Part shown: positions 10,059 to 29,860 of the stretch, in pieces | How positions within the stretch are numbered: position 1 is the stretch's first letter | Layout of the letters: each line of letters begins with the position of its first letter | Source: Pseudomonadales bacterium | GTDB taxonomy: Bacteria > Pseudomonadota > Gammaproteobacteria > Pseudomonadales > Pseudohongiellaceae | Length of the DNA: 64,000 nt | NCBI GenBank assembly: GCA_012103535.1 | Contig: WLWQ01000004.1 | Coordinates: forward strand, 124,001-188,000 | Reading direction: 5' to 3' | Program-made: the position numbers and the translations under genes | The notes under the pieces: generated by a model | Database searches by the model: none | Told to the model about the DNA's origin: nothing | Seen by the model: only the letters and a program-made list of their open reading frames with translations

Positions 10059-10065
10059 GTAATAA

Positions 10066-11931: not shown

Positions 11932-11935
11932 TCTT

Positions 11936-14615: not shown

Positions 14616-15646
14616 TGGGACGGGTATCAATCTTTATAGCTAATTTGTTAGTTGTATTGCTGTGCATCAGTAGCGCCTCAGCTCAAAATAGCAGGTTAAA
14701 AGACGGCGCAATTGGTTTTGTCATGACCGATTTGTTCTGGTCGGTATATCAAACACCTGCTGCAGAAGAATGTCCCAGAGGATTTAACGACGGACCAAGA
14801 GAACAATTTGAAAAACTGTTTCCTGCCCATGAATTTTTGTCAGTAGAAGAAACACAGCTAAAACAAGAAATAGAAACCTGGCATCCAAACACCGAACCTG
14901 ATGGATTTGAATTCCTGCAAGTAGAAGGAGATCTTTCCTGGGGTTTGAATTTAGATGGTGAAGTGGGGCCGAATGATTTCACTCATCCAGAGGGAGGAGA
15001 AGGAATTGACAACGAAGTTTATCGTGCGGTGGGTTGCATTATAGGTTTTCGTGGGCCGGATGGTGTCGAATATATATTTCAAAACAAGGCCATTCTGGAT
15101 CGTCGCTACAATAGGATGATGATAGAAATTACCGAGGTCGATGATTTAACTAATGATGATTCAGTTAAGGTTACCTGGTATCGAGGCATGGACCGGCTGC
15201 TCACTGATGCAACCGGGCAGAAAGTTATGCCCGGCGGAACACAGAGAGTCGATTATCGTTGGGGTCGGAGTCTAATTCGGGAAACGACTGGCAAGATTGT
15301 CGACTCAGTACTAACAACAGAACCAATTGGTGATCTGGTCGTGCCATGGATGAATTTAAGTGTTCCCTCTACTCACATCTTCCGAGATGCGCGCCTGCAA
15401 TTAAACCTTAGCGAAGAAAATGCCACAGGACTGTTAGCTGGCTATGCTGATGTCGATACTTTTTACTACCAACTAATTCGTAATGACTCCACCCACCACT
15501 TAAGCAATGGTCAAATTTCCGGTATCTCTCTGTACAAAGCCTTACGCCGACTCGCCGACGCGCACCCGGATTCGGAAACAGGTGAAAACATGGCGATATC
15601 CACTGCGCTGGATATCAAGATGACTCAGGTGTTTGTAAGGCAATAA
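14615..15646 (+). CDS. unknown secreted protein, last gene of the DUF1592/DUF1552 operon
   Basis: 343 residues with a Sec signal peptide cleaved near 'SASAQ'. Its ATG overlaps the preceding stop (TAATG), so it is translationally coupled to the secreted-repeat gene. I recognise no domain. The mature protein is rich in aromatic and acidic residues, has Cys residues at 'EECPRG' and 'VGCIIG', and looks like a globular beta-rich periplasmic protein. Its place in the operon suggests an accessory role in the same periplasmic electron-transfer or oxidation complex. Confidence 0.7.
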   Translation: MGRVSIFIANLLVVLLCISSASAQNSRLKDGAIGFVMTDLFWSVYQTPAAEECPRGFNDGPREQFEKLFPAHEFLSVEETQLKQEIETWHPNTEPDGFEFLQVEGDLSWGLNLDGEVGPNDFTHPEGGEGIDNEVYRAVGCIIGFRGPDGVEYIFQNKAILDRRYNRMMIEITEVDDLTNDDSVKVTWYRGMDRLLTDATGQKVMPGGTQRVDYRWGRSLIRETTGKIVDSVLTTEPIGDLVVPWMNLSVPSTHIFRDARLQLNLSEENATGLLAGYADVDTFYYQLIRNDSTHHLSNGQISGISLYKALRRLADAHPDSETGENMAISTALDIKMTQVFVRQ

Positions 15647-15721
15647 TTTAGCCTATGCTCTATCACAAGTCCTCGCTGTATTCATGATTGAGACGATAGA
15701 TCACGAGAAAGCCAGGCATCT

Positions 15722-16246
15722 ATGAATAACACCCCAAAGACGACTAATCCGGCGAGAGATTTTTCCTTTCTGCAGTGTTTTGAAACTGGATTTAAGCGCC
15801 ACCTCAGTGCGGCGGAAGCATGGAAACTATTTGTTGAAGCTCAGTCCTCGGCAGATTCATTCAGGCTTAATATTGATGAGTTGGAAAAATTTGATCAACT
15901 ACTGGCGTTTTGCGAACAGGTGGGCATTTCACTTAGTGATTTTTTAGAGGCTCATCCGTGGGTTAAAGACCAGAAATCAATCAATGTCAGCTGGGAGGCT
16001 TCTACTTGCTACCCATGGATGGATCGGGAGTTATCCGAAGAGGAACTCCGAATTTTTGTAAAGACGTTTCCAGAAATGGCACAGCAGCTAAAAGGCTATG
16101 CAATGGTTCTGATGGAGAATGCATTTATTCAGGAAATTGGGGATTGTTATGCTCATCCCCTTAGCAAACAATTTTTAACGTTTTTGCAACAAGTAGCTAA
16201 AAAGCTATTACCGGATGATTTCGATCCTAATGCTGTTTATGAGTAG
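15722..16246 (+). CDS. unknown cytoplasmic protein, 174 aa
   Basis: No recognised domain, no signal peptide and no membrane segment. Predicted mostly helical, with aromatic-rich stretches ('SWEASTCYPWMDRELSEEEL'). An AGG site lies 5 bases before the ATG. It is 75 bp downstream of the DUF1592/DUF1552 operon and convergent to the ROK-like gene, so its allegiance is unclear. Codon use and length look like a real gene. Confidence 0.6.
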   Translation: MNNTPKTTNPARDFSFLQCFETGFKRHLSAAEAWKLFVEAQSSADSFRLNIDELEKFDQLLAFCEQVGISLSDFLEAHPWVKDQKSINVSWEASTCYPWMDRELSEEELRIFVKTFPEMAQQLKGYAMVLMENAFIQEIGDCYAHPLSKQFLTFLQQVAKKLLPDDFDPNAVYE

Positions 16247-16280
16247 TTACGAGCTTATAAAAGTTCATTATTTTCAATTT

Positions 16281-16312
16281 AGCATATAAGTAAAATTTCT
16301 ACTTATTTTGAT
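16281..16312. terminator. weak A+T-rich inverted repeat between convergent genes
   Basis: ATAAGTA (16286-16292) and TACTTAT (16300-16306) form a perfect 7-bp stem with a 7-base loop, followed by TTTT on the plus strand. The stem is A+T-rich and overlaps the ROK-like stop codon, so termination would be inefficient. Confidence 0.35.
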
Positions 16313-17936
16313 AATCTTCTATCACCGCAAGTGCTGCTCCGCTTGCGCCACTAATACTAGCATCTGGAGTTGAAAGATAAATTTCAACATCGCTAAAGGC
16401 TTCACCATATTCGCTCACGAGTATCTCTTTTATCCTTGCGGAATTAGTTATCCCTGTCAGCGGGCCTCCAGCCCAGGCGACAGTGCAAATGTCGAGCATT
16501 TCAACAAAGTAGGCAGTAGCATCCGCTAGCAAAGTAAAAGTTAAATCTTCAACGGTTTTTTTGTTCTTGCCATCGTTCAATTGCTCAAATCGATCGACTT
16601 CCATGTCTGACGGCTTTTCGGTGTTGTCGCCAGCTCGAAGAATGTACATTTCTTCGTCTGATATTTTACCTAAAAAGGGTAGCGCGTTCATTGCCAGCTT
16701 TTTAATTCCATCACCACTAAAAAGCTTGTTAGGGTCTCCAGCTGGCCAATTACCACACGTTGGAAATGGGCAACCGATGTCTAACACAATTTTTCCAGAC
16801 TCGCTGAGAATATCTAAAATTTCATTTTGCGAAACCACACCCATTCCCAGACCAGTACCACAAACCAGAGCGATAAGATTAGAGCGCTTTAATTTTGTAG
16901 CAGCATCTAGAGCGTGGGCGTCGCCGTCGTTAATCATGCGCACCACGGGGCAAGCAAAAATCGATGCAAAAGCTTCGCGAAAGGGAAGGGCAAATATATC
17001 CTCGGCGCTAGTCACGCCAACCCAGCCAGAATAGCCCTTAAAGTAGCCCAACGTTGCGCTGCTTGCAGCAATACGCTCAGCAAAAGGCGAGCCAGTAACA
17101 GCGCCGGGATAAGTAATTCCTATGCGAACTATTTGATTAACAGAAACGTCGAGCTTTTTTAGTTGCGGAACATAATTGTCATGCAATTTTTGCGCAAAAT
17201 CTTTTGGAGAAGCATATTGAGGATTCTCATCCTTGCAATTCTCTTGTTGTTCCAACTTGGTTTTGACTGATTCGAATTCTTTGACGAGTTCCAGTTCGCC
17301 GTCGCTGATCTTATACAGTTGGCACTTAGTATTGGAACCACCCACATCAAAACTCAACACGAAGCTATCGTCTGTGGATACACTGTATGCACTGACAGGA
17401 GAGATGGGCTCAGCACTAGAAGTTTTGTCCCTGACAGCTGAAAAGGTTTCGCAATAAGTCGCAAACGTATCTTGGTTATTGAGATTTTCTGCCCATTCTT
17501 TTGTCTCAATCCAGGCATTAACAGATTCATTGGTGGCGGAATTAGAGCAGAGAGTGAATGATCCTACTCCTGAAGTCGTCCGGAGGTTGTTACTTTCAGA
17601 CGATACCAGGCGCGCTAAAATCAGTTTTGGATTTAGCCAGTTATCTTTGTTTGAGTTTGCTCCTTCTACAATATTTCCAAGCTCTTCAATTGAAGGGGCC
17701 AGCTCTGGAAGGAAAAAAGATGAATTCACATTTTTGCCTTGCTCAGTGGAGAAGCGATAGTTCTTGAAAAGACTATTAAACTCAGCTTGTTTCGAAAGGT
17801 CGCAGAGAACTCTCTTTACCAGAGGTATTGGTACAATTTTGAATCCATCAATTAAGCATTTGCGCGAATGAATAGACAAGCGACTGTCCACTTCTTTTCC
17901 AATTGCTGTGTAGAGGTTCTTATATTTGTTATCCAT
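16299..17936 (-). CDS. ROK-type kinase-like protein with a novel N-terminal domain
   Basis: 545 residues. Residues 190-540 follow the ASKHA/ROK plan: phosphate-1 loop 'FDVGGSNTK' (196-204), catalytic-Asp region 'NDGDAHALD' (336-344), phosphate-2 loop 'CGTGLGMG' (359-366), a 'CPFPTCGNW' block in place of the ROK zinc motif and adenosine motif 'AGGPLTG' (489-495). The canonical GExGH and CxCGxxGC residues are only partly kept, so the metal site is altered. Residues 1-170 are not part of ROK proteins and are homologous to the 185-residue protein encoded just upstream. Probably phosphorylates or binds a sugar-like ligand; could be a sensor. Last gene of the LysR-like operon. Confidence 0.75.
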   Translation of the reverse strand: MDNKYKNLYTAIGKEVDSRLSIHSRKCLIDGFKIVPIPLVKRVLCDLSKQAEFNSLFKNYRFSTEQGKNVNSSFFLPELAPSIEELGNIVEGANSNKDNWLNPKLILARLVSSESNNLRTTSGVGSFTLCSNSATNESVNAWIETKEWAENLNNQDTFATYCETFSAVRDKTSSAEPISPVSAYSVSTDDSFVLSFDVGGSNTKCQLYKISDGELELVKEFESVKTKLEQQENCKDENPQYASPKDFAQKLHDNYVPQLKKLDVSVNQIVRIGITYPGAVTGSPFAERIAASSATLGYFKGYSGWVGVTSAEDIFALPFREAFASIFACPVVRMINDGDAHALDAATKLKRSNLIALVCGTGLGMGVVSQNEILDILSESGKIVLDIGCPFPTCGNWPAGDPNKLFSGDGIKKLAMNALPFLGKISDEEMYILRAGDNTEKPSDMEVDRFEQLNDGKNKKTVEDLTFTLLADATAYFVEMLDICTVAWAGGPLTGITNSARIKEILVSEYGEAFSDVEIYLSTPDASISGASGAALAVIEDYQNK

Positions 17937-17983
17937 CAGTTGTTTCCATTTAATAGAAATAGCTAATATTTTGGCGTTGCAAA

Positions 17984-18541
17984 CTAGCGCCGAGTCTCTA
18001 GCAATTTTTCAAGGTCTGTATAAGTAATATTTCTTGCGACTTCCAAGTAATATTTTTGAGAGATCATATGGGCTGCTGCCATCCAGGATCGAATTGATTC
18101 TGGGTGAGCGGTTTCAGAAAAGGGAACGTAGTTTCCTTCGCTTTCCCATACTTGAAACTCCAGTTCCATGAAGGCAAGAAAACAGGCCAGTACAATTTCG
18201 GGTTCTAAACATTTGCTAGGGTCGGAGTCTGTCAACTTCAGTGTTTCAGAAAATGTTGAGAGATCTGGCGCGAGTTTAGGCAGGAAAAATCGAATCCAAA
18301 TTCCCTTGTAGTGAGAGCCGTAAAATTCGTACTTATCCAATAAATGGTGGTATTCAGCTCTTTTGTTGAGCTTCTCCATCATTTTTTGAATCATGTGGGT
18401 AGGTAGAAACTTATTCGAGGTGAAATCCACCGATCCGGAATAGGCGCCAATAATGCAATTCATTTCTTTATACAAAGTCAGGGTTTGCACATTTACGCCT
18501 TCAGCTTGCCAGATATCAGGAGTCTTCATTGGTTTCCCCAT
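17984..18541 (-). CDS. stand-alone copy of the ROK-associated N-terminal domain
   Basis: 185 residues, cytoplasmic, with no domain I can name. Residues about 60-153 align without gaps (offset 11) with residues 49-142 of the downstream ROK-like protein: AEY/AEF, FFLPKLAP/FFLPELAP, LEPEIVLA/LNPKLILA and ESIRSW/ESVNAW. The ATG follows directly on the stop of the LysR-like gene (TAGATG), so the two are translationally coupled. The ROK-like gene begins 47 bp downstream. A paired free and fused copy suggests hetero-oligomer formation or competition for the same partner. Confidence 0.75.
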   Translation of the reverse strand: MGKPMKTPDIWQAEGVNVQTLTLYKEMNCIIGAYSGSVDFTSNKFLPTHMIQKMMEKLNKRAEYHHLLDKYEFYGSHYKGIWIRFFLPKLAPDLSTFSETLKLTDSDPSKCLEPEIVLACFLAFMELEFQVWESEGNYVPFSETAHPESIRSWMAAAHMISQKYYLEVARNITYTDLEKLLETRR

Positions 18542-19438
18542 CTACAGATTCTGCCATTTAGCTGGATCGATAAAGAGTTTCAGCTTCTCGCGTTCCGATT
18601 TACGATAGATAGCCACCAGTGAATGTTGTTTTTGGTTGAAAGGAGCAGAGCAATAGAGAGTTTCATCGTTTTTGTCGACATAAATGTCGGGGATCGCCAT
18701 TCGAACTTCCAAGTTCCGACGAATGTGTTCTTTTCCAGCAAGAAAATTGGATGCGCGCTCTTTTGCGGGGATAAATTCTTCGCCCATTTCTTTCATATAC
18801 TTCTTGATTTCTTTGTTCAGGCGATTTCCAAAGCTGCCTCTGTCCCATTCTAATATTGGAAGCTTTGAACTGGATTTTTCTAGCTTGGCACTGCAAACTA
18901 GAACTGTGTTCCAAGGCACTAATTCCGTCTGCTCAAAACTACCAGGTAAATGTTCGAGTTTTTCGGCGGAAATGACTAAATCAATTTCACAAAATTGAAG
19001 TTTAGTTTCGTAATCTGCTGATCGAACTGAGGTTGCGATGGCGTTACTTTTCTTTTGGTATTTCCGAATAAATTCATGAATTAAAAGTCCGGAATATGCA
19101 CCCCCTGCACAAATTGGGTAATGATTCCCAAAATTCAGATCATCAATATATTGTTGCATTGCTACTTCAAATTTCCGGTGTGTCATTGCGGCTCTGGAAA
19201 CTCTTGCAGAAATCTTTCCATGCCTAAAAAACGGTATCTCATCCGGTTCAAGACCCAGTGACTCACTGACGGAATGCGTGATTTTGTTTATCTTGGTTCT
19301 GCCGTAGCCGAGTTTCTCTTCTGCATCCGTAAGGAATTTGGTTTCAGGATCTTCGATGTACTGAGCAATGTCAGAAAATTCCTTTAAATGGCGAATAGGT
19401 TCACTAAATTTTCTTTTCTTCACTTTAGCTGCTTCCAA
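18542..19438 (-). CDS. divergent LysR-like transcriptional regulator
   Basis: 298 residues. The N-terminal 65 residues fit a winged helix-turn-helix ('LTDAEEKLGYGRTKINKITHSVSESLGL' region, then 'FFRHGKISARVSRAA', which matches the LysR wing), followed by a linker helix and a periplasmic-binding-protein-like domain ('YPICAGGAYSGLL... CEIDLVISAEKLEHLPGSFEQTELV'). Similarity to LysR proteins is weak, so this is a structural guess. TTG start at 19438, or GTG 19423 with GGAAG 8 bases upstream. It is divergent from the sigma-54 activator, the usual LysR arrangement, with an operator-like palindrome between them at 19571-19589. First gene of a three-gene operon. Confidence 0.55.
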   Translation of the reverse strand: MEAAKVKKRKFSEPIRHLKEFSDIAQYIEDPETKFLTDAEEKLGYGRTKINKITHSVSESLGLEPDEIPFFRHGKISARVSRAAMTHRKFEVAMQQYIDDLNFGNHYPICAGGAYSGLLIHEFIRKYQKKSNAIATSVRSADYETKLQFCEIDLVISAEKLEHLPGSFEQTELVPWNTVLVCSAKLEKSSSKLPILEWDRGSFGNRLNKEIKKYMKEMGEEFIPAKERASNFLAGKEHIRRNLEVRMAIPDIYVDKNDETLYCSAPFNQKQHSLVAIYRKSEREKLKLFIDPAKWQNL

Positions 19439-19570
19439 TCTAGAAATTATTGACCACTGAGGAAGATAGTACTTAATGGGTCATTTCATTTCAAGAGTAA
19501 AACCTCAAAAAGCGCAATAAAGAGGCTAAAAAGTATAAGTATATTGATTTAGTACCTCATTATGACTGGT

Positions 19571-19589
19571 ATTTGCGGTAATCGCTAAT
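19571..19589. promoter_or_regulatory. operator-like imperfect palindrome in the divergent promoter region
   Basis: ATTTGCG-GTAAT-CGCTAAT, a 19-base dyad with 6 of 7 arm positions matching. It lies about 24 bases before the sigma-54 activator start and in the shared region with the LysR-like gene. This is the size and place of a LysR-family binding box, but the exact T-N11-A rule is not met. Confidence 0.4.
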
Positions 19590-19612
19590 TTGTAGGGTGC
19601 TGGTAGTAATTG

Positions 19613-20905
19613 ATGCGTCTAGAAACTTTCGAAATCTCGCGCTCTGCACGGCAACCACGCTACCGTGTGCTGGAGCTCGAAAGTGAAAAGGAGCTAAAAA
19701 GTTTGTGTGCAGACAATCCTGGGGTGCTTTATCTTATCAATGAAGATTGTCGCTCGGAGTTCACCGCTTTATGCCCAGAGGTAGACGATCGCGGAATGAA
19801 GAACACACATAATGGAATCAAAAAGAACCTTCCTATCGAAAAGGAGGATATGCATTCCAAAATATTCACTATGTTCGCAGAGTACAGTTCAACGTCAGGC
19901 CTGCTTTCTAATAGCAAAAATTTCATAATCAAACATGAAGAATTCGTGTGTCGGAACTTACTCTTTCTAGGCATTCCTGATTCGCAGTTTTTAGCATTAA
20001 AAGCAAAGCAGCAAACCGAAGAATTTGTATCCCTAGACAATTTACCGGAAGCATTGCATGCTGATGGTATACCTTTTGATTCGGCAAAATCTCTGTTGAA
20101 TTTGTTGCCCGACACAGATCAGAGTTGTGAAGAGGTTAAAACATTTTTGGGCAACGATGACAGAACCAAACTTAATCGGAAGCTGGCATTACGGCTACAA
20201 AATCTAGATCTACCTGTACTAATTATTGGGTCAAGTGGCACCGGAAAAGAATTACTTGCTCGTGCTATTGCTGCTGCAAAACCGCCGCTTGAGGCGGTTA
20301 ACTGTGCCGCCATACCTCCTAATCTTTTTGAAGCTAAAGTATTTGGTACCGAAAGAGGGGCTTTTACCGGTGCGCAAACGAAAAAAGGTCTGTTCGAATT
20401 GGCAGATGGTGGAACTTTGTTTCTGGATGAAATAGGTGATTTATCGCTGGATAATCAGGCGAAAATATTAAGAGCCATCCAGGAGCAAACAGTACGCAGA
20501 GTGGGTGGCACCGAAAATAGGCATGTAAAAGTAAGAATTGTTGCCGCTACTCATAAAGATTTACCCACACTTGTAGATAAAAATGAATTTCGGGATGACT
20601 TGTATTATCGCATCGCAGGCATGACGCTGTTTACAGAATCCCTGGCTCAACATCCAGAAAATATCCCTTACTTTGCCAACTATTTTTTGAAGAAGCATAT
20701 TGGCTCCGGCTGGGTATTTAGTCAGGAAGACTTGAATTTTATTTCTCTGCAAGCCTGGCCCGGAAATATAAGGCAGCTTGAACAATTTGTCCGGGTTTTA
20801 AGGGTAATAAACAGGAGCTCTATCGACACTGAAATGTCGAAGGTAATAGGTGTGCAAGAACTTTTTTTCAATCAATTCAGCTATGAACGAAGCGCTCTAC
20901 ATTAG
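19613..20905 (+). CDS. sigma-54 dependent transcriptional activator (enhancer-binding AAA+)
   Basis: About 430 residues; TTG 19610 is directly followed by ATG 19613. Residues 1-185 are an unrecognised sensory domain. The AAA+ core is complete: Walker A 'GSSGTGKE' (207-214), sigma-54 contact loop GAFTGA (250-255), Walker B 'TLFLDE' (269-274), 'FRDDLYYRI' arginine-finger region and closing 'WPGNIRQLE' (383-391). Only 40 residues follow and no Fis-type helix-turn-helix is visible, unlike most family members, so it may act from solution or through a DNA-binding partner. The obvious target is the sigma-54 promoter at 28591-28606 that drives the AAA/vWA operon. Confidence 0.85.
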   Translation: MRLETFEISRSARQPRYRVLELESEKELKSLCADNPGVLYLINEDCRSEFTALCPEVDDRGMKNTHNGIKKNLPIEKEDMHSKIFTMFAEYSSTSGLLSNSKNFIIKHEEFVCRNLLFLGIPDSQFLALKAKQQTEEFVSLDNLPEALHADGIPFDSAKSLLNLLPDTDQSCEEVKTFLGNDDRTKLNRKLALRLQNLDLPVLIIGSSGTGKELLARAIAAAKPPLEAVNCAAIPPNLFEAKVFGTERGAFTGAQTKKGLFELADGGTLFLDEIGDLSLDNQAKILRAIQEQTVRRVGGTENRHVKVRIVAATHKDLPTLVDKNEFRDDLYYRIAGMTLFTESLAQHPENIPYFANYFLKKHIGSGWVFSQEDLNFISLQAWPGNIRQLEQFVRVLRVINRSSIDTEMSKVIGVQELFFNQFSYERSALH

Positions 20906-20933
20906 GTCACAATGAAATTCAGGAATACAAGCT

Positions 20934-21878
20934 ATGACGATGACTCTTAGTCACTTTTCTCAAATTTCCCTAAAACAATCAACCGATGTTAACCTGGTTA
21001 TCCCCCGCGCCAATCAGATCGGTGAATCTTACGGGTACGTACGTTCTTCATTGCGAGCGCTTAAAGTTGTGGAGGAGGGTGATGTAAAAAAATCTCCACC
21101 ATTTAGAGATTACGATCCGGATCAAGTGCAAGTAGATGTTATTGAAGTAATACAGCAACACGTTAGAGAGCATACAATTTGTGTTGGAGCTCGTAATATC
21201 TTAAACGAGTTTGGCTATACGGCCAGAACCAATGGGAAATGGATCCGACGTCATGATCCTTCTCTGGATAGCAATTGGCCGGTACTTCAGTTTCGAGACA
21301 CTGGGTTGACATTCTGCAAGCAGCACGAGATAGACAGCGAGAGCGATGTGTTGACTGGTCTGCCTCTGGTCATAGATGGCGAAGCAGCAAGCAGGGAGTT
21401 TATCGTGGCGAATTGTAGCGATGTTGCCCATAGTTTCGAAGTCCACCCCTCCGGGCTTGTCGGGCCGCCACCTCCTGCCTGGCTTGAATTGGGAGATGCC
21501 TGGGAGCAAACGAAAATTGATCAGAAAACACAAGTACAAGCTTATAGCGAAATAATGGCGATTGCTGACAATCACGGGTGCGTTGAAAGCCGAGATCGTC
21601 TGCATTCACTAATATGCCAGAGCAAAGATGGAGCCTTTCATATCATCGCTTTAACGGGATCATTGACTTCGATTGCTATTAAGCTGGTTGAAATGGACAT
21701 GGATAACGGAATTATTTTGGATAATGGCGGAAGTACTGGGTTCTATTATTGTCGTGACAAAAAGTCGAAGCCAATCCAGATGCTTGCAGGTCCCAATTAC
21801 AGGCCAAAAGGAATTGCTTTTCTAGTTGCTCATGCAGTCGATTTCCCCCAACCGTTAAGCCATTCAGTCCTTGATTGA
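20934..21878 (+). CDS. NAGPA-like (phosphodiester glycosidase, DUF2233) protein
   Basis: 314 residues, no signal peptide. Residues 1-115 are unrecognised. The C-terminal part carries the pattern of the NAGPA/DUF2233 family: helix, then 'IILDNGGSTGFYY' (260-272; family consensus LDGGGST), then a closing 'RPKGIAFLVAHA' strand. NAGPA removes N-acetylglucosamine from phosphodiester-linked sugars in animals; bacterial relatives are mostly periplasmic, but this one looks cytoplasmic. Starts 28 bp after the sigma-54 activator with an AGGA site 9 bases upstream, so probably co-transcribed with it. The first Gly of the GGGS motif is Asn here (DNGGS), so activity is uncertain. Confidence 0.5.
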   Translation: MTMTLSHFSQISLKQSTDVNLVIPRANQIGESYGYVRSSLRALKVVEEGDVKKSPPFRDYDPDQVQVDVIEVIQQHVREHTICVGARNILNEFGYTARTNGKWIRRHDPSLDSNWPVLQFRDTGLTFCKQHEIDSESDVLTGLPLVIDGEAASREFIVANCSDVAHSFEVHPSGLVGPPPPAWLELGDAWEQTKIDQKTQVQAYSEIMAIADNHGCVESRDRLHSLICQSKDGAFHIIALTGSLTSIAIKLVEMDMDNGIILDNGGSTGFYYCRDKKSKPIQMLAGPNYRPKGIAFLVAHAVDFPQPLSHSVLD

Positions 21879-21978
21879 ATATCCTAATTAAACTACTTTT
21901 AAGCCCATCTTTAGCTATTTATACTTCCTGAAAGAGTGCTCAATTAGTTTTGCCGTTCTTATATGCTTTCCGCGCCAA

Positions 21979-22797
21979 TCAAGGCTTTAGGAGAATACTT
22001 TCGATGACATGTTGAGAGACTTTTTCCAATCTATCTCGACGTTTACATAGCTGCTCAGATTGCACAATGTTATCGGCAACCATATCAAGTCGAAAATAAT
22101 TACCAAGTACGCGCTTAAACAGCGGTTCTTCTCTGCCACCTTCCGCCCAGGAAACAGGTGTTTGCAAATAGTTTAAAAATGCCTTTGCCAGCAACTGTTT
22201 CAAATTTTTTGTTCTTTTTGGGAGAAGCATTAATTGATTGCCGTCTTGATCGAGGGTTTGGGTGATAAATGAATAGATAGGCTTGTGTGGATATACTTCA
22301 TGGAAAAATCGCCGGATGTCTTCATCGACCGCTCCCCTTAAATCACATAAATCTGCAGTGAGAGTTAAATACAATAACTCGGCAGCCTCACGGAAATGAG
22401 AAATTCTGAAACCGGGGAGGTCAGACATTGCCATTCCGAGATTTTGGTCGTCGTGCCAGGCAGACTGAAATATATTTCGACCAACTTTCAGGAGTAATCT
22501 GTCCACCTCGCGGGAAGTTGGCGTCTGCTCAGAAGAATTGCTCAACATATTTTCGGTTGCGCAGCGAAATTGAGAAAGACGAATCGAGAATACTTCTTTG
22601 CCATAATCCATCAGCTTGAGAAAACGTGGCTCGCCTGACATGTAATCCGGGCTTGCATAAATATCCTCAATCACCATTGGGAAATTGTCAGAGTAGTCTG
22701 AATGTTTACGGTAAAGATAGAAAGTTGCCATCAGGGTAAATTGCTCCCTCACATCCAATTCCAGGTCGGATGAAAGTTCTCTCAGAGCAAAGGACAA
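21979..22797 (-). CDS. unknown protein, last gene of the AAA/vWA operon (possible continuation of the 82-aa ORF)
   Basis: 272 residues from a TTG that has no Shine-Dalgarno. Mostly helical and cytoplasmic, with no recognised domain. It is in the same reading frame as the 82-residue ORF upstream: only one TAA (22858-22860) and 20 sense codons separate them. The real protein may therefore be a single chain of about 375 residues split by a recent stop, or a separate gene starting at TTG 22797 or ATG 22731 (AGGGAG 12 bases upstream). The last gene of the minus-strand operon; it ends 100 bp from the convergent NAGPA-like gene. Confidence 0.55.
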   Translation of the reverse strand: MSFALRELSSDLELDVREQFTLMATFYLYRKHSDYSDNFPMVIEDIYASPDYMSGEPRFLKLMDYGKEVFSIRLSQFRCATENMLSNSSEQTPTSREVDRLLLKVGRNIFQSAWHDDQNLGMAMSDLPGFRISHFREAAELLYLTLTADLCDLRGAVDEDIRRFFHEVYPHKPIYSFITQTLDQDGNQLMLLPKRTKNLKQLLAKAFLNYLQTPVSWAEGGREEPLFKRVLGNYFRLDMVADNIVQSEQLCKRRDRLEKVSQHVIESILLKP

Positions 22798-22857
22798 ATC
22801 AGAATAATCGCTAAACGAAAACTCTCTGTCTGCTGAAAAAGATTCGATTGAAAACTT

Positions 22858-23106
22858 TTACTTTAATAAGTTGACTGTATCTCTAAATCTGATGAGGGAG
22901 CCGCCGGATTGTTCGAAGACCTGGCGCCGGGTATCGTAACTGTCGAGCAAACAGATTGCATTCTTGAGTGCCTTTCTGATATCCACATTCCGGTTTCGGT
23001 AGGAACCGTAGTGGCCATTATTGTAGCCATAATCGTGTTCATACCAATATTCATCATCATGTACCGAGTCAAGGTTAAGGACTGCATTAGGTCTTGAATT
23101 GCTCAT
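22858..23106 (-). CDS. small Tyr/Asn-rich protein, 82 aa, of the AAA/vWA operon
   Basis: No known domain. The N-terminal part is rich in Tyr, His and Asn ('DDEYWYEHDYGYNNGHYGSYRNRN'-type composition), the C-terminal half is an amphipathic helix. An excellent AAGGAG Shine-Dalgarno overlaps the end of the vWA gene and only 3 bp separate the two genes, so it is certainly translated. It may be the N-terminus of a larger protein interrupted by TAA (see the following gene). Confidence 0.6.
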   Translation of the reverse strand: MSNSRPNAVLNLDSVHDDEYWYEHDYGYNNGHYGSYRNRNVDIRKALKNAICLLDSYDTRRQVFEQSGGSLIRFRDTVNLLK

Positions 23107-23109
23107 ATG

Positions 23110-25209
23110 TTACTCCTTTCTTAAATACTTTGATCGCTCCCGGATGCAGCTAGCTACATAGAGGCCAATTTTTTCTGCGACGGCGGCCGGATCAGTGAGA
23201 TCGTCGCTAGTTACGGCAATGGTCTTGTCTACAACCCCATCCATTTCAGCATTGGCCGGGCGACCAAGAGAAACGAGTGTGCTATGGAAACGACTGCCGA
23301 GCTGAGATTTAGCAGATTCAAAAGTTGCTTTGACTTCATCCAACGATGTCATATTGGAAGCATGGAAACTTTTGTTCCACATTGTGTCTGTTATCAAGAT
23401 CAGGTAGATCATGGAATTCATGGCGATTGCAGCGCCATCTGAAATAATGAAGGACAGTGCCTTGGCATCTTCTTGCGAACCGTATCCGCCGGAGTTGGGT
23501 AGTGATGCTATGGCATCCAGCGAATGGGCAAGACTGTTTTCAGTTTTGTTCGGGTGGCAAATCCACTGTACGACTTGCCCGCCGAGTCCGCGTCTGACAT
23601 TGCCGGAGGTAAAAATTGCGGCGGCCACTTTGGCGCTACTCTGTTTTGTTGCCCGCAACCATCCAGCAGTGAGGGTTTTCGAAAGTTCCATTTGCGGTTG
23701 GTTTAACGAACTACTGCCGTCTACCGCGATGAGAATGAGTGGACTTCCTCGTCGATCGGCAGCTTCTTCAATGCGAAAGCGTTTATAGATAGCGTCGGAC
23801 ATTTTCGCCAGTGGTAGTCGATTGCCATCGAATGAACCACTGGTGCGAATGCGCTCAACTATTGAGGCAGGTTGTACATTGGGGTGAAAATTTCGTTTTA
23901 GCGCTTGCGAAATTTCATCAGAATCTTGAATCAGTTTCTCCACAGCATCTGGATCACTTTTCGTCTCCAGAGGTCGGTCAAAAATTTCGCCCGAAAACTC
24001 GTTTTCCCCCACTTTTAAGGTCACTTCACTGCCGTCGGTAGGAATGCCTTCCAGTGGGCCAGAATTGAAGGGCCGGCCTCTTGTTGCGGCTGCTACCTTG
24101 TCCGAACGCATATCTTCCCAGTTACCTTTCTGGCTGCTTGCTGCCTCTAGAGTCGCAGCAATATCTTTCAGAATCTCGGCTTTTGGATCAGGGATGGATT
24201 TTAGTTTCCCATCTGCGTCTTTCACCTGTCTTGGGGGCCGGGATTCCTTTGCAATTCTTTCCGCCGCTGTATTCGGTTCGAAAAGCATTGGACGGGTGGG
24301 TTTTAACAGTGGTGGGATCTTGTCAGATATTTCACCTCTCACGGCAAAACCATCATTGAAGTAGTGTTCGTCATCATCTTCCTGCAAAGAATAAGGCGCA
24401 TAGGAAAACGGATAGGGAAGATGGTGTTGCAGTGACTGGCAAAGCTCCCTCGCCCATTCACAGCAAAGGGAAATTTTGTCCTCTGGTGCTGTGTCTGCCA
24501 ATGAATCCAGGTATTCATAACTTAGTTCATTGGTCTTTCGATAAAGCTTTTCTGAAAACGGATGCATGTTCAGCAATTCTGGGGGAGGAATAATGTCGCC
24601 AACAGTCGTAGCAATACGAACAATTTCTGGCAGACTTTCAAATTTCAGGGTCTCCATCGCCGCGCTGTACAAGCGGTAGATTTCAGCCTGAGGAATATTG
24701 CAAGTGGACGTTAGCTCGTTAAATTTAATGCGAGTGCCTACCCACTCAGTGCAAACTTCTGCCATTTTACGATAGGTTTCAGAATCACAGAGAACGTCAT
24801 CGTGTTCGGCAGGATTGGATAGATAATCTGCTCTCAATATTCTCAATACTTCATCCGGCGAACGTGTTTTGAATTCCAGGAAGGCGGTTAAGCCAACTGC
24901 CGCAGCAGTTGCCTGAATAGTTGGGTAAGAAGAAAAAATTGGACTCAGCTGTTGTTTTGCTTTGGCCTTACGCTCTTCATGATTGGAGACACCGAGCGCA
25001 GTAACAATTTTTTTAGTAGCGGTATTTACATCGCGGGTTAGTTGCCGCTTCGCGCTTTGACGTACCGAGTAATCCAGGTTGGCACGATAGGCATCGCTTG
25101 AACTTATTCCGGCCCAAAAGACTTTATTTCTGCGCTGACTACTGCGACCAAATCGATTTGAACCTGAATACGAGGTGCTGTAGGAATTGTTAATTTTGAT
25201 CGTTGCCAT
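23110..25209 (-). CDS. von Willebrand factor A domain protein
   Basis: 699 residues from ATG 25209, which has AGGA 7 bases upstream (the longer frame from 25266 lacks this and overlaps the previous stop). Residues 1-485 are a large, mainly helical region with no recognised domain. The vWA domain occupies about 490-699: strand 'LILIAVDGSSS' supplies the intact MIDAS motif DxSxS (Asp497, Ser499, Ser501), followed by 'ISDGAA' and 'LILITDTMW' (third metal-site loop). MoxR ATPases commonly act on or with vWA proteins encoded next door, to load metal or assemble complexes. The MoxR-like gene lies 56 bp upstream. Confidence 0.85.
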   Translation of the reverse strand: MATIKINNSYSTSYSGSNRFGRSSQRRNKVFWAGISSSDAYRANLDYSVRQSAKRQLTRDVNTATKKIVTALGVSNHEERKAKAKQQLSPIFSSYPTIQATAAAVGLTAFLEFKTRSPDEVLRILRADYLSNPAEHDDVLCDSETYRKMAEVCTEWVGTRIKFNELTSTCNIPQAEIYRLYSAAMETLKFESLPEIVRIATTVGDIIPPPELLNMHPFSEKLYRKTNELSYEYLDSLADTAPEDKISLCCEWARELCQSLQHHLPYPFSYAPYSLQEDDDEHYFNDGFAVRGEISDKIPPLLKPTRPMLFEPNTAAERIAKESRPPRQVKDADGKLKSIPDPKAEILKDIAATLEAASSQKGNWEDMRSDKVAAATRGRPFNSGPLEGIPTDGSEVTLKVGENEFSGEIFDRPLETKSDPDAVEKLIQDSDEISQALKRNFHPNVQPASIVERIRTSGSFDGNRLPLAKMSDAIYKRFRIEEAADRRGSPLILIAVDGSSSLNQPQMELSKTLTAGWLRATKQSSAKVAAAIFTSGNVRRGLGGQVVQWICHPNKTENSLAHSLDAIASLPNSGGYGSQEDAKALSFIISDGAAIAMNSMIYLILITDTMWNKSFHASNMTSLDEVKATFESAKSQLGSRFHSTLVSLGRPANAEMDGVVDKTIAVTSDDLTDPAAVAEKIGLYVASCIRERSKYLRKE

Positions 25210-25265
25210 GGTTGGTCCTTTTGGAATATTCATTACATGCTGATGTTTAGCTAAAAGAGGTAGCA

Positions 25266-26288
25266 CTAAATTGTGCTACCACCTGTTTCTTCCACTTCCT
25301 CATCTTCAAAATCTGCCAATCCGAATACCTCGTTGCAGATGGATGAAGCTTGGGCTTTTTCGGCATTGCAGATATTTCCCAGCAGGGTGACATTGGCAAC
25401 TTGCTCACCTTCTAAGTAAGGAAAACAGCGGGAATAGTTAATAAAGGAGATATAACCCTGGATGGTTGGAGGAACGGCAGACAGGATATTTCCTTCTTCC
25501 CGCTCCTTACGAATGCGATGTCCGAGTTTTACTGCGCTTATGCAAAGTTCACGATGCTCGGTACCTTTACCTTTTTGTTTTCTTGTGATTCTGTCGACAA
25601 TTTCAATTTCCTCTTCCAGCGACAAATAGTTCATCGTGAGATTAACAGGGTAGCGCCTCTTGAGGGCGTCATCCTGAACACTTAAAGTGTGCACCATCTC
25701 TCCCTCGGAGGCCTGGTAATTGCTATCAGTTATCCAGCGTATTCCCTTTCCGCTTAATCGTGTGCCATCACGGAGTTCTATAATGCCGGCGCTCATCAAA
25801 TTCAGTAGACTTCCCTGAATAGTGCTGCTAAGGGTTCTTCCCATTTCCTTGCAATGGATAACGCAGTAATAATCATCAACAAGATCCTGGGCTTCTGATA
25901 GTGCTTTTACTATTGGGCTGAACTCATCGAATGTACCTTTGTCATCAAAACCCCGCCTGAAATGTACTTCGGCTGGTGATTCAAAGGTCGACATTTCCAC
26001 CGGAAAATATTTGATTGGCTTGTGGACACAGCCGAGCGCTTTACACAATCTCTTAAAATTTTCAGGCTGATAGGCGAAGCTCTCGATGGTGTCGCTTTTT
26101 GCAACGCCAGTTGGACCACTGACATGAATGTTTTCGTCTTCCACGATGGCATAAGTGAGGGTGTCCAGAACGATGCGAGGCAAAAACAGGGCGTGGGAAC
26201 CATCAACAGGAATAGTTTCGATCAGGTCATCGCTACCGGCTTTTTGATAATCGCTGGTGCGTTTAAGGCTGTATATTTTCTTTCTCAT
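25266..26288 (-). CDS. MoxR-like AAA+ ATPase with altered Walker B
   Basis: 340 residues, cytoplasmic. Walker A reads 'GPTGVAKS' (58-65, with Ala in the place of the last Gly). The Walker B position reads 'YCVIHCKEMGR' (141-151), so the Mg-binding Asp of hhhhDE is replaced by Lys, with Glu148 kept. Sensor 1 Asn190 ('ITDSN') and the arginine region 'ALKRRYP' (209-214) are present. It may bind ATP and hydrolyse slowly or act as a partner of the ClpB-like protein encoded 12 bp upstream. AGGA Shine-Dalgarno at 8 bases. MoxR plus vWA is a well-known pair in metal insertion, stress and conflict systems. Confidence 0.8.
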   Translation of the reverse strand: MRKKIYSLKRTSDYQKAGSDDLIETIPVDGSHALFLPRIVLDTLTYAIVEDENIHVSGPTGVAKSDTIESFAYQPENFKRLCKALGCVHKPIKYFPVEMSTFESPAEVHFRRGFDDKGTFDEFSPIVKALSEAQDLVDDYYCVIHCKEMGRTLSSTIQGSLLNLMSAGIIELRDGTRLSGKGIRWITDSNYQASEGEMVHTLSVQDDALKRRYPVNLTMNYLSLEEEIEIVDRITRKQKGKGTEHRELCISAVKLGHRIRKEREEGNILSAVPPTIQGYISFINYSRCFPYLEGEQVANVTLLGNICNAEKAQASSICNEVFGLADFEDEEVEETGGSTI

Positions 26289-26300
26289 TACGTTGTCCTC

Positions 26301-28544
26301 TTAATTGACAGGTGTGATATTAATTTGACCTTTGGCATTTGCTGCGATGAGCAAATTGGATTTTTTTTCTAATGGATATTGCTGAACCCATTCAGAGACA
26401 GCATTGACTGCCAGTGAGCGGCCGGTTTCATTTAGCAGCCGTGCTCCCATCGTTCTCGTATTGGCAGGTAATTGCTGATTAATACGGATGCCTGTCATCG
26501 CATCTACGGCAATGTTGATTGATGGGAATCCGAGTCGCGCTAATGCTGTTGATGCCGCTCGCTGAATAACTCGATTAATTATTTCTCCAACTGCATTGTC
26601 AGTGAGAGAACTGAATAGAATCGGAGAACCCACCCGACTGACAAATGCCGAGGACAGCATGTTCTTGATTTCCTCATTGACCCGGGACTTAATTTCTTCC
26701 GGGTCCGAGCTTGAAGCAAAGCCGATGGATTTATGGACGCCTTCATCCATGCCGTTAGGTAAATTCAAAGTAAAGGCGAAGATTAAGTTGGTGCAGGAAA
26801 AATTTGAGCCGATTGCGCTTTGCGCGTTACCCGTGTCCATAACCTGCAGAAACAAATCAGCAAGGGCCGCTCGCACATTTGCATTGGCATGATCGAGATC
26901 GCTTACCTCAACAACGGCACCGGTTTCTATTTTGCCGACCTGCTCCAATTTACCGGCTTTATGGGACATCACCAATCCCCGACCCGAACCAAGAAGTTGA
27001 CTGGCAGCTGTGTGATAGTCGGGCATACTGGCCGCATCAATATTGATGTAGGGAATGTTCAAGAGCTGTGCCAGGATGACGGCAGATTCTGACTTTCCGA
27101 CTCCTGGAACACCCTGGGTGCAAAATCGCAGAGGTTGATCTAATGGTCGGGAAAGTGCTTCAGTTCTGAGTCGATTACACAATTCATTCAGAGCGCGATC
27201 CTGCGCCAACAGCTCTCGCTGGAAATGCGACAACAAATCTGGATCACTTAATGTGGCAGAAAAATTTTTCTGAACATCAGGATTTCTACAGTGAATGGAT
27301 AAGGCGGTCAGTCCTGATAGCGTTTTATTAGTACTTGCCAATGTTTCAGAAAATAAATTTTCAGCCTGTGAGACTGCAGCATGATTTTTTAGCCAGCGGT
27401 TTAGTGTGCTTTTAACAATCGCTGGAAGAATCGATTTCGCTTTATCTTCTGGAATGCCTTTCAGTTGCTTTTTGACCCGTTTTTGTAGGATTTCCAGTTC
27501 GTGTCTGGCGACTCCACCGATCTCAAGGGTGCCGCGATGAACACTAAATTGCAGCAGCTTGTTAAGTGAAACAGCTGGTACTGTTTTCACTACCGGTCGC
27601 AGTGGGTCCGGCTGATCTCCCTGGCCACCGGCAAACACAGATTGCAGTTGATCATAACTGCCGGTGAAAACTACCGGTTTAGAGGAATCTGAAATTGCTG
27701 CAAGCAAAGACTGCATTTCACTGCCGATTGAATAGGGATTGGAAGCGAGACTCAGTTTGATCGATTGAACAACAATTGGTCCTGGTGCTTTGCTCGTTAA
27801 CGCGATCAGGGTATTTGCATTTATTGCATGCTTGGTGAAATTCCCGAGGAGAATACCTTGTGGCATGCACTTGCTAGCTATACAGGCGAGTGCGTAGTCA
27901 ATAACTGCAGGCCATTTACAGGAAATTGCCAGGTTGCAGCCTGCTTCCAGGTAATCTATGCAGGATTCTGACCATTCTCCCATGGAGTCAGGAGCAGCCT
28001 GATCAGCACCGAGCAAGGGTACTGGTTCCAGTACATCGTTCAGTTCTTTAAATTTTTCCTTTGCCTGACTTTCGTCGTCAATGCTGGGAAGCTCCTCTTT
28101 AATTTCAGTAGCGAGCTTATCGACACTCCTCAATTCGGCGACAAAGGTATTAGTGCGCGTCGCTGTCAGTGGCTGAGCTTTGATGGTGAGGCCAACTGCA
28201 TAACTGGTCTGGCCATCATTAAGCTCTTGAGGAGCCAGAAGACTGACCTTCGGCCCCAAATGGGACAGCTTTTCGAATATGGCGGCAAGTGAAGCACGCA
28301 TGTTGCTGCTCGCATTGAGCAGTTCCATACGTAAATTAATCAGCTCATCTTCGATCTTGCCTTCGATCGCAATCACTCCGATGGGTGATTGAGCCGGATC
28401 AGATTTGGTTGAGAAGCTTGTGTTGGTTGAGTTGAGTTGAATTGAGAAGCCCAACGTCTGGGAGCAAAGACTAGCGACTTGAACCAGGGCTTTTTCAGCC
28501 AATTGCCCCTGATTCAGAGTGTTTTGAGAGGGTATGCTTTGCAT
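26301..28544 (-). CDS. large ClpB-like AAA+ protein with degenerate N-terminal half
   Basis: 747 residues. Residues 445-745 follow the second ATPase domain of Clp/Hsp100 proteins: 'LLAQDRAL' lead-in, Walker A 'GVPGVGKS' (478-485), sensor-1 Asn594 and a C-terminal small domain. The Walker B stretch reads 'AVVEVSDLDHANANV' where Clp proteins have 'VVLLDEIEKAHPDV', so the Asp-Glu pair is Ser-Asp. Residues 200-345 look like an AAA module that lost its Walker A ('VVFTGSYDQLQSVF' resembles a sensor strand). The first gene of the operon; GGGGA Shine-Dalgarno 7-8 bases before ATG, 36 bases below a sigma-54 promoter. Probably a remodelling chaperone or scaffold. Confidence 0.75.
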   Translation of the reverse strand: MQSIPSQNTLNQGQLAEKALVQVASLCSQTLGFSIQLNSTNTSFSTKSDPAQSPIGVIAIEGKIEDELINLRMELLNASSNMRASLAAIFEKLSHLGPKVSLLAPQELNDGQTSYAVGLTIKAQPLTATRTNTFVAELRSVDKLATEIKEELPSIDDESQAKEKFKELNDVLEPVPLLGADQAAPDSMGEWSESCIDYLEAGCNLAISCKWPAVIDYALACIASKCMPQGILLGNFTKHAINANTLIALTSKAPGPIVVQSIKLSLASNPYSIGSEMQSLLAAISDSSKPVVFTGSYDQLQSVFAGGQGDQPDPLRPVVKTVPAVSLNKLLQFSVHRGTLEIGGVARHELEILQKRVKKQLKGIPEDKAKSILPAIVKSTLNRWLKNHAAVSQAENLFSETLASTNKTLSGLTALSIHCRNPDVQKNFSATLSDPDLLSHFQRELLAQDRALNELCNRLRTEALSRPLDQPLRFCTQGVPGVGKSESAVILAQLLNIPYINIDAASMPDYHTAASQLLGSGRGLVMSHKAGKLEQVGKIETGAVVEVSDLDHANANVRAALADLFLQVMDTGNAQSAIGSNFSCTNLIFAFTLNLPNGMDEGVHKSIGFASSSDPEEIKSRVNEEIKNMLSSAFVSRVGSPILFSSLTDNAVGEIINRVIQRAASTALARLGFPSINIAVDAMTGIRINQQLPANTRTMGARLLNETGRSLAVNAVSEWVQQYPLEKKSNLLIAANAKGQINITPVN

Positions 28545-28590
28545 TTGTTGATTTCCCCAGATAAAGAAAAATTGGAATCAACAATGACAT

Positions 28591-28606
28591 CGCAAAAATT
28601 GGGCCA
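28591..28606 (-). promoter_or_regulatory. sigma-54 (-24/-12) promoter of the AAA/vWA operon
   Basis: On the minus strand the sequence reads TGGCCCA-ATTT-TTGCG, against the consensus TGGCACG-N4-TTGCW. The invariant GG (28604-28605) and GC (28592-28593) are exactly 10 bases apart. Transcription would start near 28580, leaving a leader of about 36 bases that holds the GGGGA ribosome site of the ClpB-like gene. Confidence 0.75.
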
Positions 28607-28639
28607 GAATGTTCCGGCTGCAAGATGGGTCGCTTGAAA

Positions 28640-28661
28640 TTCAATCAAGGGATAGATTGAA
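28640..28661. promoter_or_regulatory. inverted repeat upstream of the sigma-54 promoter (candidate enhancer site)
   Basis: TTCAATC-AAGGGATA-GATTGAA: perfect 7-bp arms, 8-base spacer, centre about 46 bases upstream of the -24 element. The position suits an activator or integration-factor site. A second overlapping dyad, CTTGA (28634-28638) with TCAAG (28645-28649), shares the left arm. Which protein binds is unknown, since the nearby activator shows no DNA-binding domain. Confidence 0.4.
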
Positions 28662-28830
28662 AACAGGATCTACAACTATTTGTGAACAGTCAGAAGAATG
28701 CTTTTTAGTGTTGGCGAGTAGTTAAATATGAAACGGGGAGATCACTTAATAATTCTTAAAAAAGATTTTATGCGTGTGACATGTTACTCTTGGTTAGAGT
28801 GTCAGAGCTGTCTCGGAACGATATCAATCG

Positions 28831-29685
28831 CTAAGTCCTAAGTTCAGTTACCAGAGCAGTGTAGTGGTTTACGAGTTCTGAATTTTCTCTTTTTCGAGCT
28901 CCTTTAATCAAAATATTGCATTTTCTAAGCAGTGCATTTCGCGTTGCTTCCTTCAAGCAAGGGTCTAGATTTTCAATATTCATCATTTTGTTTAATGCCT
29001 GCACTCTAAATCTATCCATCCCCCAGTATTTTCTGGAAAGTTGATCTTCATGGCCACCGTATTTTGTTAATAACGGAGTTTCGAGAAACAGCACTGCCTG
29101 TTGTGCACAAATGCGTAACCATAGATCGTAGTCTTCACAGGCAGGTAATGATTCATCGAATCCGCCAACCTGTTCAAACAATTCCTTAGATAGAAGAACG
29201 GAAGAAGGAGAAATTACGCAGAGCTTCAGGCAATCAAGATAGATGTCACCGCCTCGCTTCTTGTGTTTGTTCATTTGATTAACCCGCACACCATTTCTAA
29301 TCCAGATTTCTTCGGTATGGCAGAGTTGATACTCAGGATTTTCTTGTAATGCGCTAATTTGCAATTCGAGTTTTTTCGGCAGCCAGGTGTCATCGTTATC
29401 CAGGAATGCTATCCAGTTGCCAGAAGCAGCTTCTACTCCGCGATTGCGAGAGTAACTGACTCCCCGGTTGGCATGGTACAGGTACCTGGTATCGGGATAA
29501 TTCGCTTTAATAGTCTCTTCGGTGCCATCATCAGAACCGTCGTCGACGACGATAATTTCATGCGCTGTATGTGTCTGTTCAAGCACAGAATCTATTGCCT
29601 GGCAGAGAGTTTCCTTACGATTATAAGTGGGAATTACCACACTTACTGAAATCGGATCAGCGCAAGTTGGCTTTGTATCGCTCAT
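28831..29685 (-). CDS. family 2 glycosyltransferase
   Basis: 284 residues, cytoplasmic or peripheral membrane. The GT-A fold motifs are plain: 'SVVIPTYNRKETL', 'EIIVVDDGSDDGT', 'NRGVSYSRNRGVEAASGNWIAF' landmarks and the nucleotide-sugar/metal motif 'LDNDDTW', then 'CEDYDLWLR' as the catalytic-base region. It would transfer a sugar to a polysaccharide or lipid acceptor; the donor cannot be read. It stands alone: upstream is the promoter region of an opposite-strand gene and downstream (on its strand) lies the AAA/vWA operon with its own promoter. No Shine-Dalgarno is evident at the ATG. Confidence 0.92.
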   Translation of the reverse strand: MSDTKPTCADPISVSVVIPTYNRKETLCQAIDSVLEQTHTAHEIIVVDDGSDDGTEETIKANYPDTRYLYHANRGVSYSRNRGVEAASGNWIAFLDNDDTWLPKKLELQISALQENPEYQLCHTEEIWIRNGVRVNQMNKHKKRGGDIYLDCLKLCVISPSSVLLSKELFEQVGGFDESLPACEDYDLWLRICAQQAVLFLETPLLTKYGGHEDQLSRKYWGMDRFRVQALNKMMNIENLDPCLKEATRNALLRKCNILIKGARKRENSELVNHYTALVTELRT

Positions 29686-29860
29686 GTTGGCTATATAACG
29701 TACGCTAAGTAAATTTATTAAACAGATGAAAGCATAGCAATCGACAGCTATGTGTCAAAAATCTTGGGTGGAATGAACATACGCTATAGAATGATGTGAT
29801 TGCCATCCCTATACTGAGAATATTAGGCTAATCCGCAGCATCCCTCTCCAGGAGGTTAGA

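What the first reader, a model, noticed from the sequence alone, without database searches (positions are those of the whole stretch)
16299..18541. A new domain present both alone and fused to a ROK-like kinase
Residues 60-153 of the 185-aa protein align without gaps with residues 49-142 of the ROK-like protein (FFLPxLAP, LxPxxxLA, ExxxxW). The pair is unusual and may form a regulated complex.
Basis: seen in the sequence. Interest (0 to 1): 0.75.

Follow-up and report, generated by a model that had tools for sequence, protein, structure and literature searches.

The report
Shared orphan domain beside ROK kinase
Two neighbouring genes really do share a previously undescribed protein domain, once on its own and once fused to an unusual ROK-type (sugar-kinase-fold) protein, and both sit on a 14-kb inserted gene island that looks like a distant relative of bacterial conflict (defence) systems, although nothing about its function has been tested.

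Summary
The 185-aa protein and the first ~145 residues of the 545-aa protein are homologous: 62 bits, E=4e-16, and none of 1,000 shuffles comes near. The C-terminal half passes Pfam's ROK cut-off. It keeps the phosphate loops and the catalytic Asp position but has lost the canonical ROK His-Cys zinc/sugar site.

The shared domain matches no Pfam, NCBIfam, PHROG or PADLOC model. I found no relatives outside this genome, so fusions elsewhere could not be tested.

Both genes lie in an operon with a divergent LysR-type regulator, on a 14.2-kb segment that three congeners lack: there its two flanking genes are about 130 bp apart. The segment also carries a Clp-type AAA+, a MoxR-like and a vWA-like gene in one tight block. 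This resembles the MoxR-vWA ternary conflict systems of Kaur et al. 2020 (PMC7159879).

My reading is that the domain is a helical coupling adaptor, working like their effector-associated domains, that links the small protein to the ROK module. This is inference; both AlphaFold models failed. The 'regulated complex' idea is plausible and untested.

The parts
16299..17936 (-). 545-aa protein: N-terminal shared domain (residues ~1-145), linker, then a divergent ROK domain (~190-545)
   Evidence: Pfam ROK 8.4e-7, 29.2 bits against cut-off 22.9; motif mapping against 27 canonical ROKs of relatives
17511..17924 (-). shared domain, fused copy (residues 5-142 of the 545-aa protein)
   Evidence: BLASTP to the 185-aa protein, E=4e-16; shuffles
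17984..18541 (-). 185-aa protein: shared domain, standalone copy (residues ~6-154) plus a short C-terminal tail
   Evidence: no library match at E up to 10
18542..19438 (-). 298-aa divergent LysR-type regulator (winged HTH plus part of the ligand-binding domain), first gene of the operon; its stop abuts the start of the 185-aa gene
   Evidence: hhalign score 32.2 to four LysR proteins of the same genome, against 9.6-16.5 for ten shuffles and 12.5-17.8 for nine other island proteins; not detected by Pfam LysR_substrate
19610..20905 (+). 431-aa sigma-54-activator-type AAA+ with GAFTGA loop, divergent from the operon; ends after the AAA lid, with no C-terminal HTH
   Evidence: Pfam Sigma54_activat 2e-56; PADLOC RtcR_PspF2 8e-74 covering model positions 129-408 of 481; GAFTGA at residue 250
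20934..21878 (+). 314-aa protein, weak phosphodiester-glycosidase (NAGPA) resemblance around DNGGST
   Evidence: Pfam NAGPA E=0.014, below cut-off
23110..25266 (-). 718-aa protein with a C-terminal vWA-like stretch (DGSSS, MIDAS-type) and a long N-terminal region
   Evidence: motif at residue 513; no Pfam vWA match
25266..26288 (-). 340-aa MoxR-like AAA+, Walker A GPTGVAKS
   Evidence: best Pfam matches bpMoxR E=0.01 and AAA_5 E=0.11, both below cut-off
26301..28544 (-). 747-aa protein with a C-terminal Clp-type AAA+ domain
   Evidence: Pfam AAA_2 6e-10; NCBIfam ClpA 2e-19, far below its cut-off
15647..29860 (.). inserted 14.2-kb segment (genomic island) carrying all of the above
   Evidence: the flanking genes 14615-15646 and 29861-30880 are about 130 bp apart in relatives G1164, G1142 and G1166

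Best explanation
The shared ~145-residue, predicted mostly helical domain is a non-enzymatic coupling adaptor. The 185-aa protein carries it alone and the 545-aa protein carries it in front of a divergent ROK (ASKHA-fold) module, so contacts between the two copies can hold the small protein on the ROK protein or place several ROK modules in one assembly. The ROK module probably still binds ATP and may phosphorylate a small, possibly non-sugar, substrate. The operon is governed by a divergent LysR-type regulator and belongs to an inserted island whose AAA+/MoxR/vWA block resembles MoxR-vWA ternary conflict systems; the ROK protein would be an effector or signalling arm, analogous to proteins recruited there by effector-associated domains. 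Shown: homology of the two domains, ROK membership by Pfam, gene order, insertion relative to three congeners. Inferred: helical adaptor role, homotypic contact, link to the MoxR/vWA block, conflict role.
For: Homology is strong. The genes are tightly linked: regulator stop abuts the 185-aa start, and 47 bp separate the 185-aa stop from the ROK start. The ROK phosphate motif DVGGSNTK, PG, catalytic Asp position (NDGDA) and GTGLG are kept. All island genes lie in one segment that three relatives lack. The MoxR-like protein's best Pfam match is bpMoxR, the MoxR of MoxR-vWA-beta-propeller systems, and its P-loop GPTGVAKS resembles the GXXXTAKS variant reported for those systems. Kaur et al. describe small, mostly helical domains duplicated in adjacent genes of these systems and propose that they couple effectors by homotypic contact (PMC7159879).
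Against: No copy of the domain is fused to a core (MoxR, vWA or AAA+) protein, which the effector-associated domains require. At ~145 residues it may be larger than those domains. The MoxR match is below its cut-off and the vWA assignment rests on a motif. Both AlphaFold models have low confidence (pLDDT 50 and 33) and Foldseek found nothing, so helicity is a weak prediction. With no relatives outside this genome, conserved linkage cannot be shown.
Confidence: 0.4

Rival explanations
1. The 185-aa gene is a leftover of a tandem duplication of the ROK gene that lost its kinase half; it is a decaying paralogue, or at most a passive competitor for whatever the ROK N-domain binds.
For: The two copies are adjacent, same strand and same order, and no third copy exists in the genome.
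Against: At about 25% identity the duplication is old, yet the 185-aa frame is open with normal codon usage and keeps the same motifs, which argues for retained function. No remnant of a ROK half follows it.
Confidence: 0.2
2. The N-domain is a ligand- or DNA-binding regulatory domain and the 545-aa protein is a ROK-type transcriptional repressor or sensor, analogous to NagC or Mlc, with the 185-aa protein as a co-regulator.
For: ROK repressors are built as an N-terminal domain plus ROK (general knowledge of the family), and here the gene is in one run with a LysR-type regulator.
Against: The N-terminal 190 residues match no HTH or any other Pfam model even at E=10; the domain is about twice the length of a typical ROK winged HTH; the canonical ROK zinc motif is also missing.
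Confidence: 0.15
3. The pair is an ordinary small-molecule kinase with a regulatory subunit, unconnected with the MoxR/vWA block that happens to lie on the same island.
For: ROK motifs for ATP and catalysis are largely kept; the NAGPA-like 314-aa protein and a family-2 glycosyltransferase on the island would fit sugar chemistry; the MoxR/vWA block is a separate transcription unit.
Against: The sugar-binding ExGH and the zinc cysteines characteristic of canonical ROK sugar kinases are altered; no transport or catabolic gene was recognised in the segment.
Confidence: 0.2

Closest known systems
ROK family (Pfam PF00480: sugar kinases and ROK repressors)
   Same: Pfam score above the gathering cut-off; DxGGSN, PG, ND and GTGxG motifs in order
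   Different: ExGH has become ESGK, the CxCGxxGC zinc motif is not kept, and a 145-residue domain sits at the N-terminus with no HTH; the genome's ordinary ROK kinase is a separate gene on another contig
Effector-associated domains (EADs) of MoxR-vWA and GTPase conflict systems (Kaur et al. 2020, PMC7159879)
   Same: small domain without recognised enzymatic features, duplicated in adjacent genes, one copy fused to an enzyme domain, in a MoxR/vWA-bearing locus
   Different: no copy on a core component; matches no Pfam model, and so none of any EAD models Pfam may hold; possibly longer; the free copy is a standalone protein
FtsH- and beta-propeller-type MoxR-vWA ternary systems (Kaur et al. 2020, PMC7159879)
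   Same: adjacent AAA+, MoxR-like and vWA-like genes; MoxR best match is bpMoxR; AKS-type P-loop; vWA-like stretch preceded by a long N-terminal region; extra orphan proteins linked
   Different: the third protein carries a Clp-type, not FtsH-type, AAA+; no beta-propeller, Ubl or caspase match found; all assignments are weak; ROK, LysR and sigma-54 are not mentioned in that paper

Membership tests
ROK family (PF00480) | profile match above the curated cut-off | tested here: met
   29.2 bits against 22.9
ROK family (PF00480) | ATP-binding and catalytic motifs (DxGG[TS], catalytic ND, GTGxG) | tested here: met
   D197-VGGSN, N336-D337 and G360-TG; ND and GTG aligned to canonical ROKs, DVGGSN read from the sequence
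ROK family (PF00480), canonical sugar kinases and repressors | ExGH sugar/zinc His and CxCGxxGC zinc motif | tested here: not met
   ESGK and C389-x4-C394-G, third Cys absent (and sequence)
ROK transcriptional repressors | N-terminal winged HTH | tested here: not met
   no HTH model at E up to 10 in residues 1-190; structure unknown
Effector-associated domains (Kaur et al. [quoted passage not shown]
   profile search of all window ORFs finds only the two copies
Effector-associated domains (Kaur et al. 2020) | second copy in an adjacent gene fused to an effector or signalling domain | tested here: met
   185-aa and ROK-fused copies in adjacent genes
Effector-associated domains (Kaur et al. 2020) | small, mostly all-helical fold | tested here: inconclusive
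   AlphaFold model mostly helical but pLDDT 50
MoxR-vWA ternary systems | MoxR AAA+ component | tested here: inconclusive
   bpMoxR E=0.01 and AAA_5 E=0.11, below cut-offs; Walker A GPTGVAKS
MoxR-vWA ternary systems | vWA component | tested here: inconclusive
   DGSSS motif only; no Pfam vWA match
MoxR-vWA ternary systems, FtsH type | third protein with two FtsH-type AAA+ domains, the first inactive | tested here: inconclusive
   one Clp-type AAA+ at the C-terminus; N-half matches AAA_30 at E=0.01 and does not align to the C-half above shuffles
LysR-type regulators | winged HTH plus ligand-binding domain | tested here: inconclusive
   colinear hhalign match well above controls, but no Pfam match

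The most novel reading that the evidence does not exclude
The island is a new class of MoxR-vWA conflict system in which a ROK (ASKHA-fold) protein is the effector or signal-making arm, coupled through a new homotypic adaptor domain and regulated by a LysR-type protein and an HTH-less sigma-54-type AAA+.
Probability: 0.25. Interest if true: 0.75.

Novelty: new variant of a known kind. Interest (0 to 1): 0.48.

Why it matters
If the reading is right, it adds a ROK/ASKHA enzyme to the parts list of MoxR-vWA conflict systems and gives a new adaptor domain whose partner is encoded next door, so the homotypic-coupling idea could be tested with two small proteins. If only the domain homology survives, it is still an undescribed domain fused to a ROK module that has lost its canonical zinc/sugar site.

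Tried and rejected
Relatives: tblastn in plasmids and phages, seeded scans of IMG/VR and of 84,980 GTDB genomes (twice, the second time with degenerate motif patterns made from synthetic rows), and whole-genome searches of relatives, order, phylum, class and a second class found none. The seeded scans depend on short conserved peptides, so they are weak negatives; one search had no positive control. A 0.009 hit in G638 is 43 residues with a stop codon, and a 0.003 hit in G935 covers only the ROK part of a 308-residue frame: both rejected.

Divergent ROK hits in relatives (G053, G045, G011) look by eye like Glk-type glucokinases and lack the N-domain. AlphaFold on both proteins and Foldseek were uninformative. 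Other copies of the domain among island proteins: none. A sigma-54 promoter in the divergent intergenic region: none with the strict pattern. Boundary repeats: only an 8-bp inverted match, within chance.

A defence hotspot at the same site in other congeners: their neighbourhoods differ, with no comparable island seen among ORFs read by eye. The lysozyme-like gene at 30946 was considered as a sign of a prophage and rejected, because it is conserved at the same place in an island-free relative.

Full report
Observation. The window holds a minus-strand run of three genes: 298 aa (19438-18542), 185 aa (18541-17984) and 545 aa (17936-16299). The 185-aa protein and the N-terminus of the 545-aa protein align over residues 6-154 and 4-143 at 23% identity, 62.4 bits, E=4e-16. 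Against 1,000 shuffles the local score is 144 compared with a maximum of 66, and the best ungapped diagonal scores 142 compared with 25 for the next. A profile of the two copies finds no third copy among the window's ORFs, and a whole-genome search finds only these two. The similarity is real and is not shared with any Pfam, NCBIfam, PHROG or PADLOC model.

The ROK part. Residues 242-491 match Pfam ROK at 8.4e-7, above the curated cut-off. Aligned to 27 ordinary ROK kinases from relatives, it keeps the PG turn, the ND of the catalytic aspartate and GTGLG; the DVGGSN phosphate loop is read directly from the sequence. It has ESGK where ROKs have ExGH, and it lacks the CxCGxxGC zinc motif, retaining only C-x4-CG (and sequence). 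ATP binding is likely and sugar-kinase activity uncertain. The genome has a separate, ordinary ROK kinase on another contig, of a kind found across the genus.

Distribution. No relative of the pair turned up in plasmids, phages, IMG/VR or two seeded scans of GTDB genomes, nor in whole genomes of 58 relatives, 392 of the order, 399 of the phylum, 369 of the class and 78 of a second class, overlapping samples. The second GTDB scan used synthetic rows only to make its search patterns tolerant. Rarity is therefore likely but not proven: the seeded scans need short conserved peptides, and most species were not searched whole.

Setting. The gene just left of the locus (14615-15646) is conserved in about 40 congeners. 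In three of them (G1164, G1142, G1166) it is followed about 130 bp later by the homologue of window gene 29861-30880, whereas here 14.2 kb lie between. So 15647-29860 was inserted in this lineage or lost in the others; rarity favours insertion. The segment is slightly lower in GC (0.439 against 0.460). There is no tRNA and no significant boundary repeat, and I recognised no integrase among its genes.

Neighbours. The 298-aa protein is a divergent LysR-type regulator: hhalign to four LysR proteins of the same genome scores 32 against 10-18 for shuffles and other island proteins, colinear over the HTH and part of the ligand domain, although Pfam does not detect it. Divergently transcribed lie a sigma-54-type AAA+ with GAFTGA but no C-terminal HTH and a protein with weak NAGPA similarity. 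Beyond them is a tight minus-strand block: a protein with a Clp-type AAA+ domain, a MoxR-like AAA+ and a vWA-like protein, with a 12-bp gap and a 1-bp overlap between them. The MoxR-like protein's best Pfam match is bpMoxR, E=0.01, below cut-off, and its P-loop is GPTGVAKS. The vWA call rests on a DGSSS motif. The MoxR-like and vWA-like proteins have no relatives in the congeners searched, and none in the plasmid, phage or viral collections where they were sought.

Comparison with what is known. Kaur et al. 2020 (PMC7159879) describe MoxR-vWA ternary conflict systems, some with a third AAA+ protein and with a GXXXTAKS P-loop in MoxR, and effector-associated domains: small, mostly helical, duplicated in adjacent genes, and proposed to couple effectors by homotypic contact. 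The pair here has the duplicated-in-adjacent-genes pattern, but no copy on a core protein, so it is not filed as such a domain; it may work like one. The ternary-system resemblance is suggestive and each component test is weak or inconclusive. That paper does not mention ROK or LysR.

Mechanism. I favour an adaptor reading: the free copy binds the fused copy and so regulates or gathers the ROK module (confidence 0.4). Rivals are a decaying tandem duplicate (0.2), an ordinary kinase with a regulatory subunit (0.2) and a regulatory DNA- or ligand-binding domain (0.15). Structure prediction could not decide: pLDDT 50 and 33, and no Foldseek match better than E=0.19.

Verdict. Observation confirmed; interpretation partly supported. 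The domain is undescribed as far as these libraries go, but it is known from two paralogues in one genome. The larger finding is the orphan island around it.

Noticed in passing
window 23110-28544 (-): Tight three-gene block with a Clp-type AAA+, a MoxR-like AAA+ (GPTGVAKS) and a vWA-like protein, all very divergent; the MoxR-like and vWA-like genes are absent from the congeners searched. Possibly a new MoxR-vWA system in its own right.
   Followed up: partly
window 19610-20905 (+): Sigma-54-activator-type AAA+ with an intact GAFTGA loop but ending after the AAA lid, so without a DNA-binding HTH.
   Followed up: partly
window 20934-21878 (+): 314-aa protein with weak NAGPA (phosphodiester glycosidase) similarity around DNGGST, no relatives in plasmids.
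   Followed up: no
window 21979-22797 (-): 272-aa orphan protein with no Pfam match at E up to 10.
   Followed up: no
window 28831-29685 (-): Family-2 glycosyltransferase inside the inserted segment, next to the AAA+ block.
   Followed up: no
window 15648 and about 29821: 8-bp inverted match TTAGCCTA/TAGGCTAA lying at both edges of the inserted segment; not more than chance by count, but positioned at the junctions.
   Followed up: partly
window 30946-31506 (+): Protein that looks by eye like a phage-type (GH24) lysozyme; conserved at the same chromosomal place in relative G1164 (79.6% identity), so not part of the island.
   Followed up: partly
window 8775-14615 (+): Run of cytochrome c, DUF1592/1588/1585/1595, DUF1552 and secreted-repeat (Lipoprotein_15) genes, a combination I know best from planctomycetes (own knowledge).
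   Followed up: no
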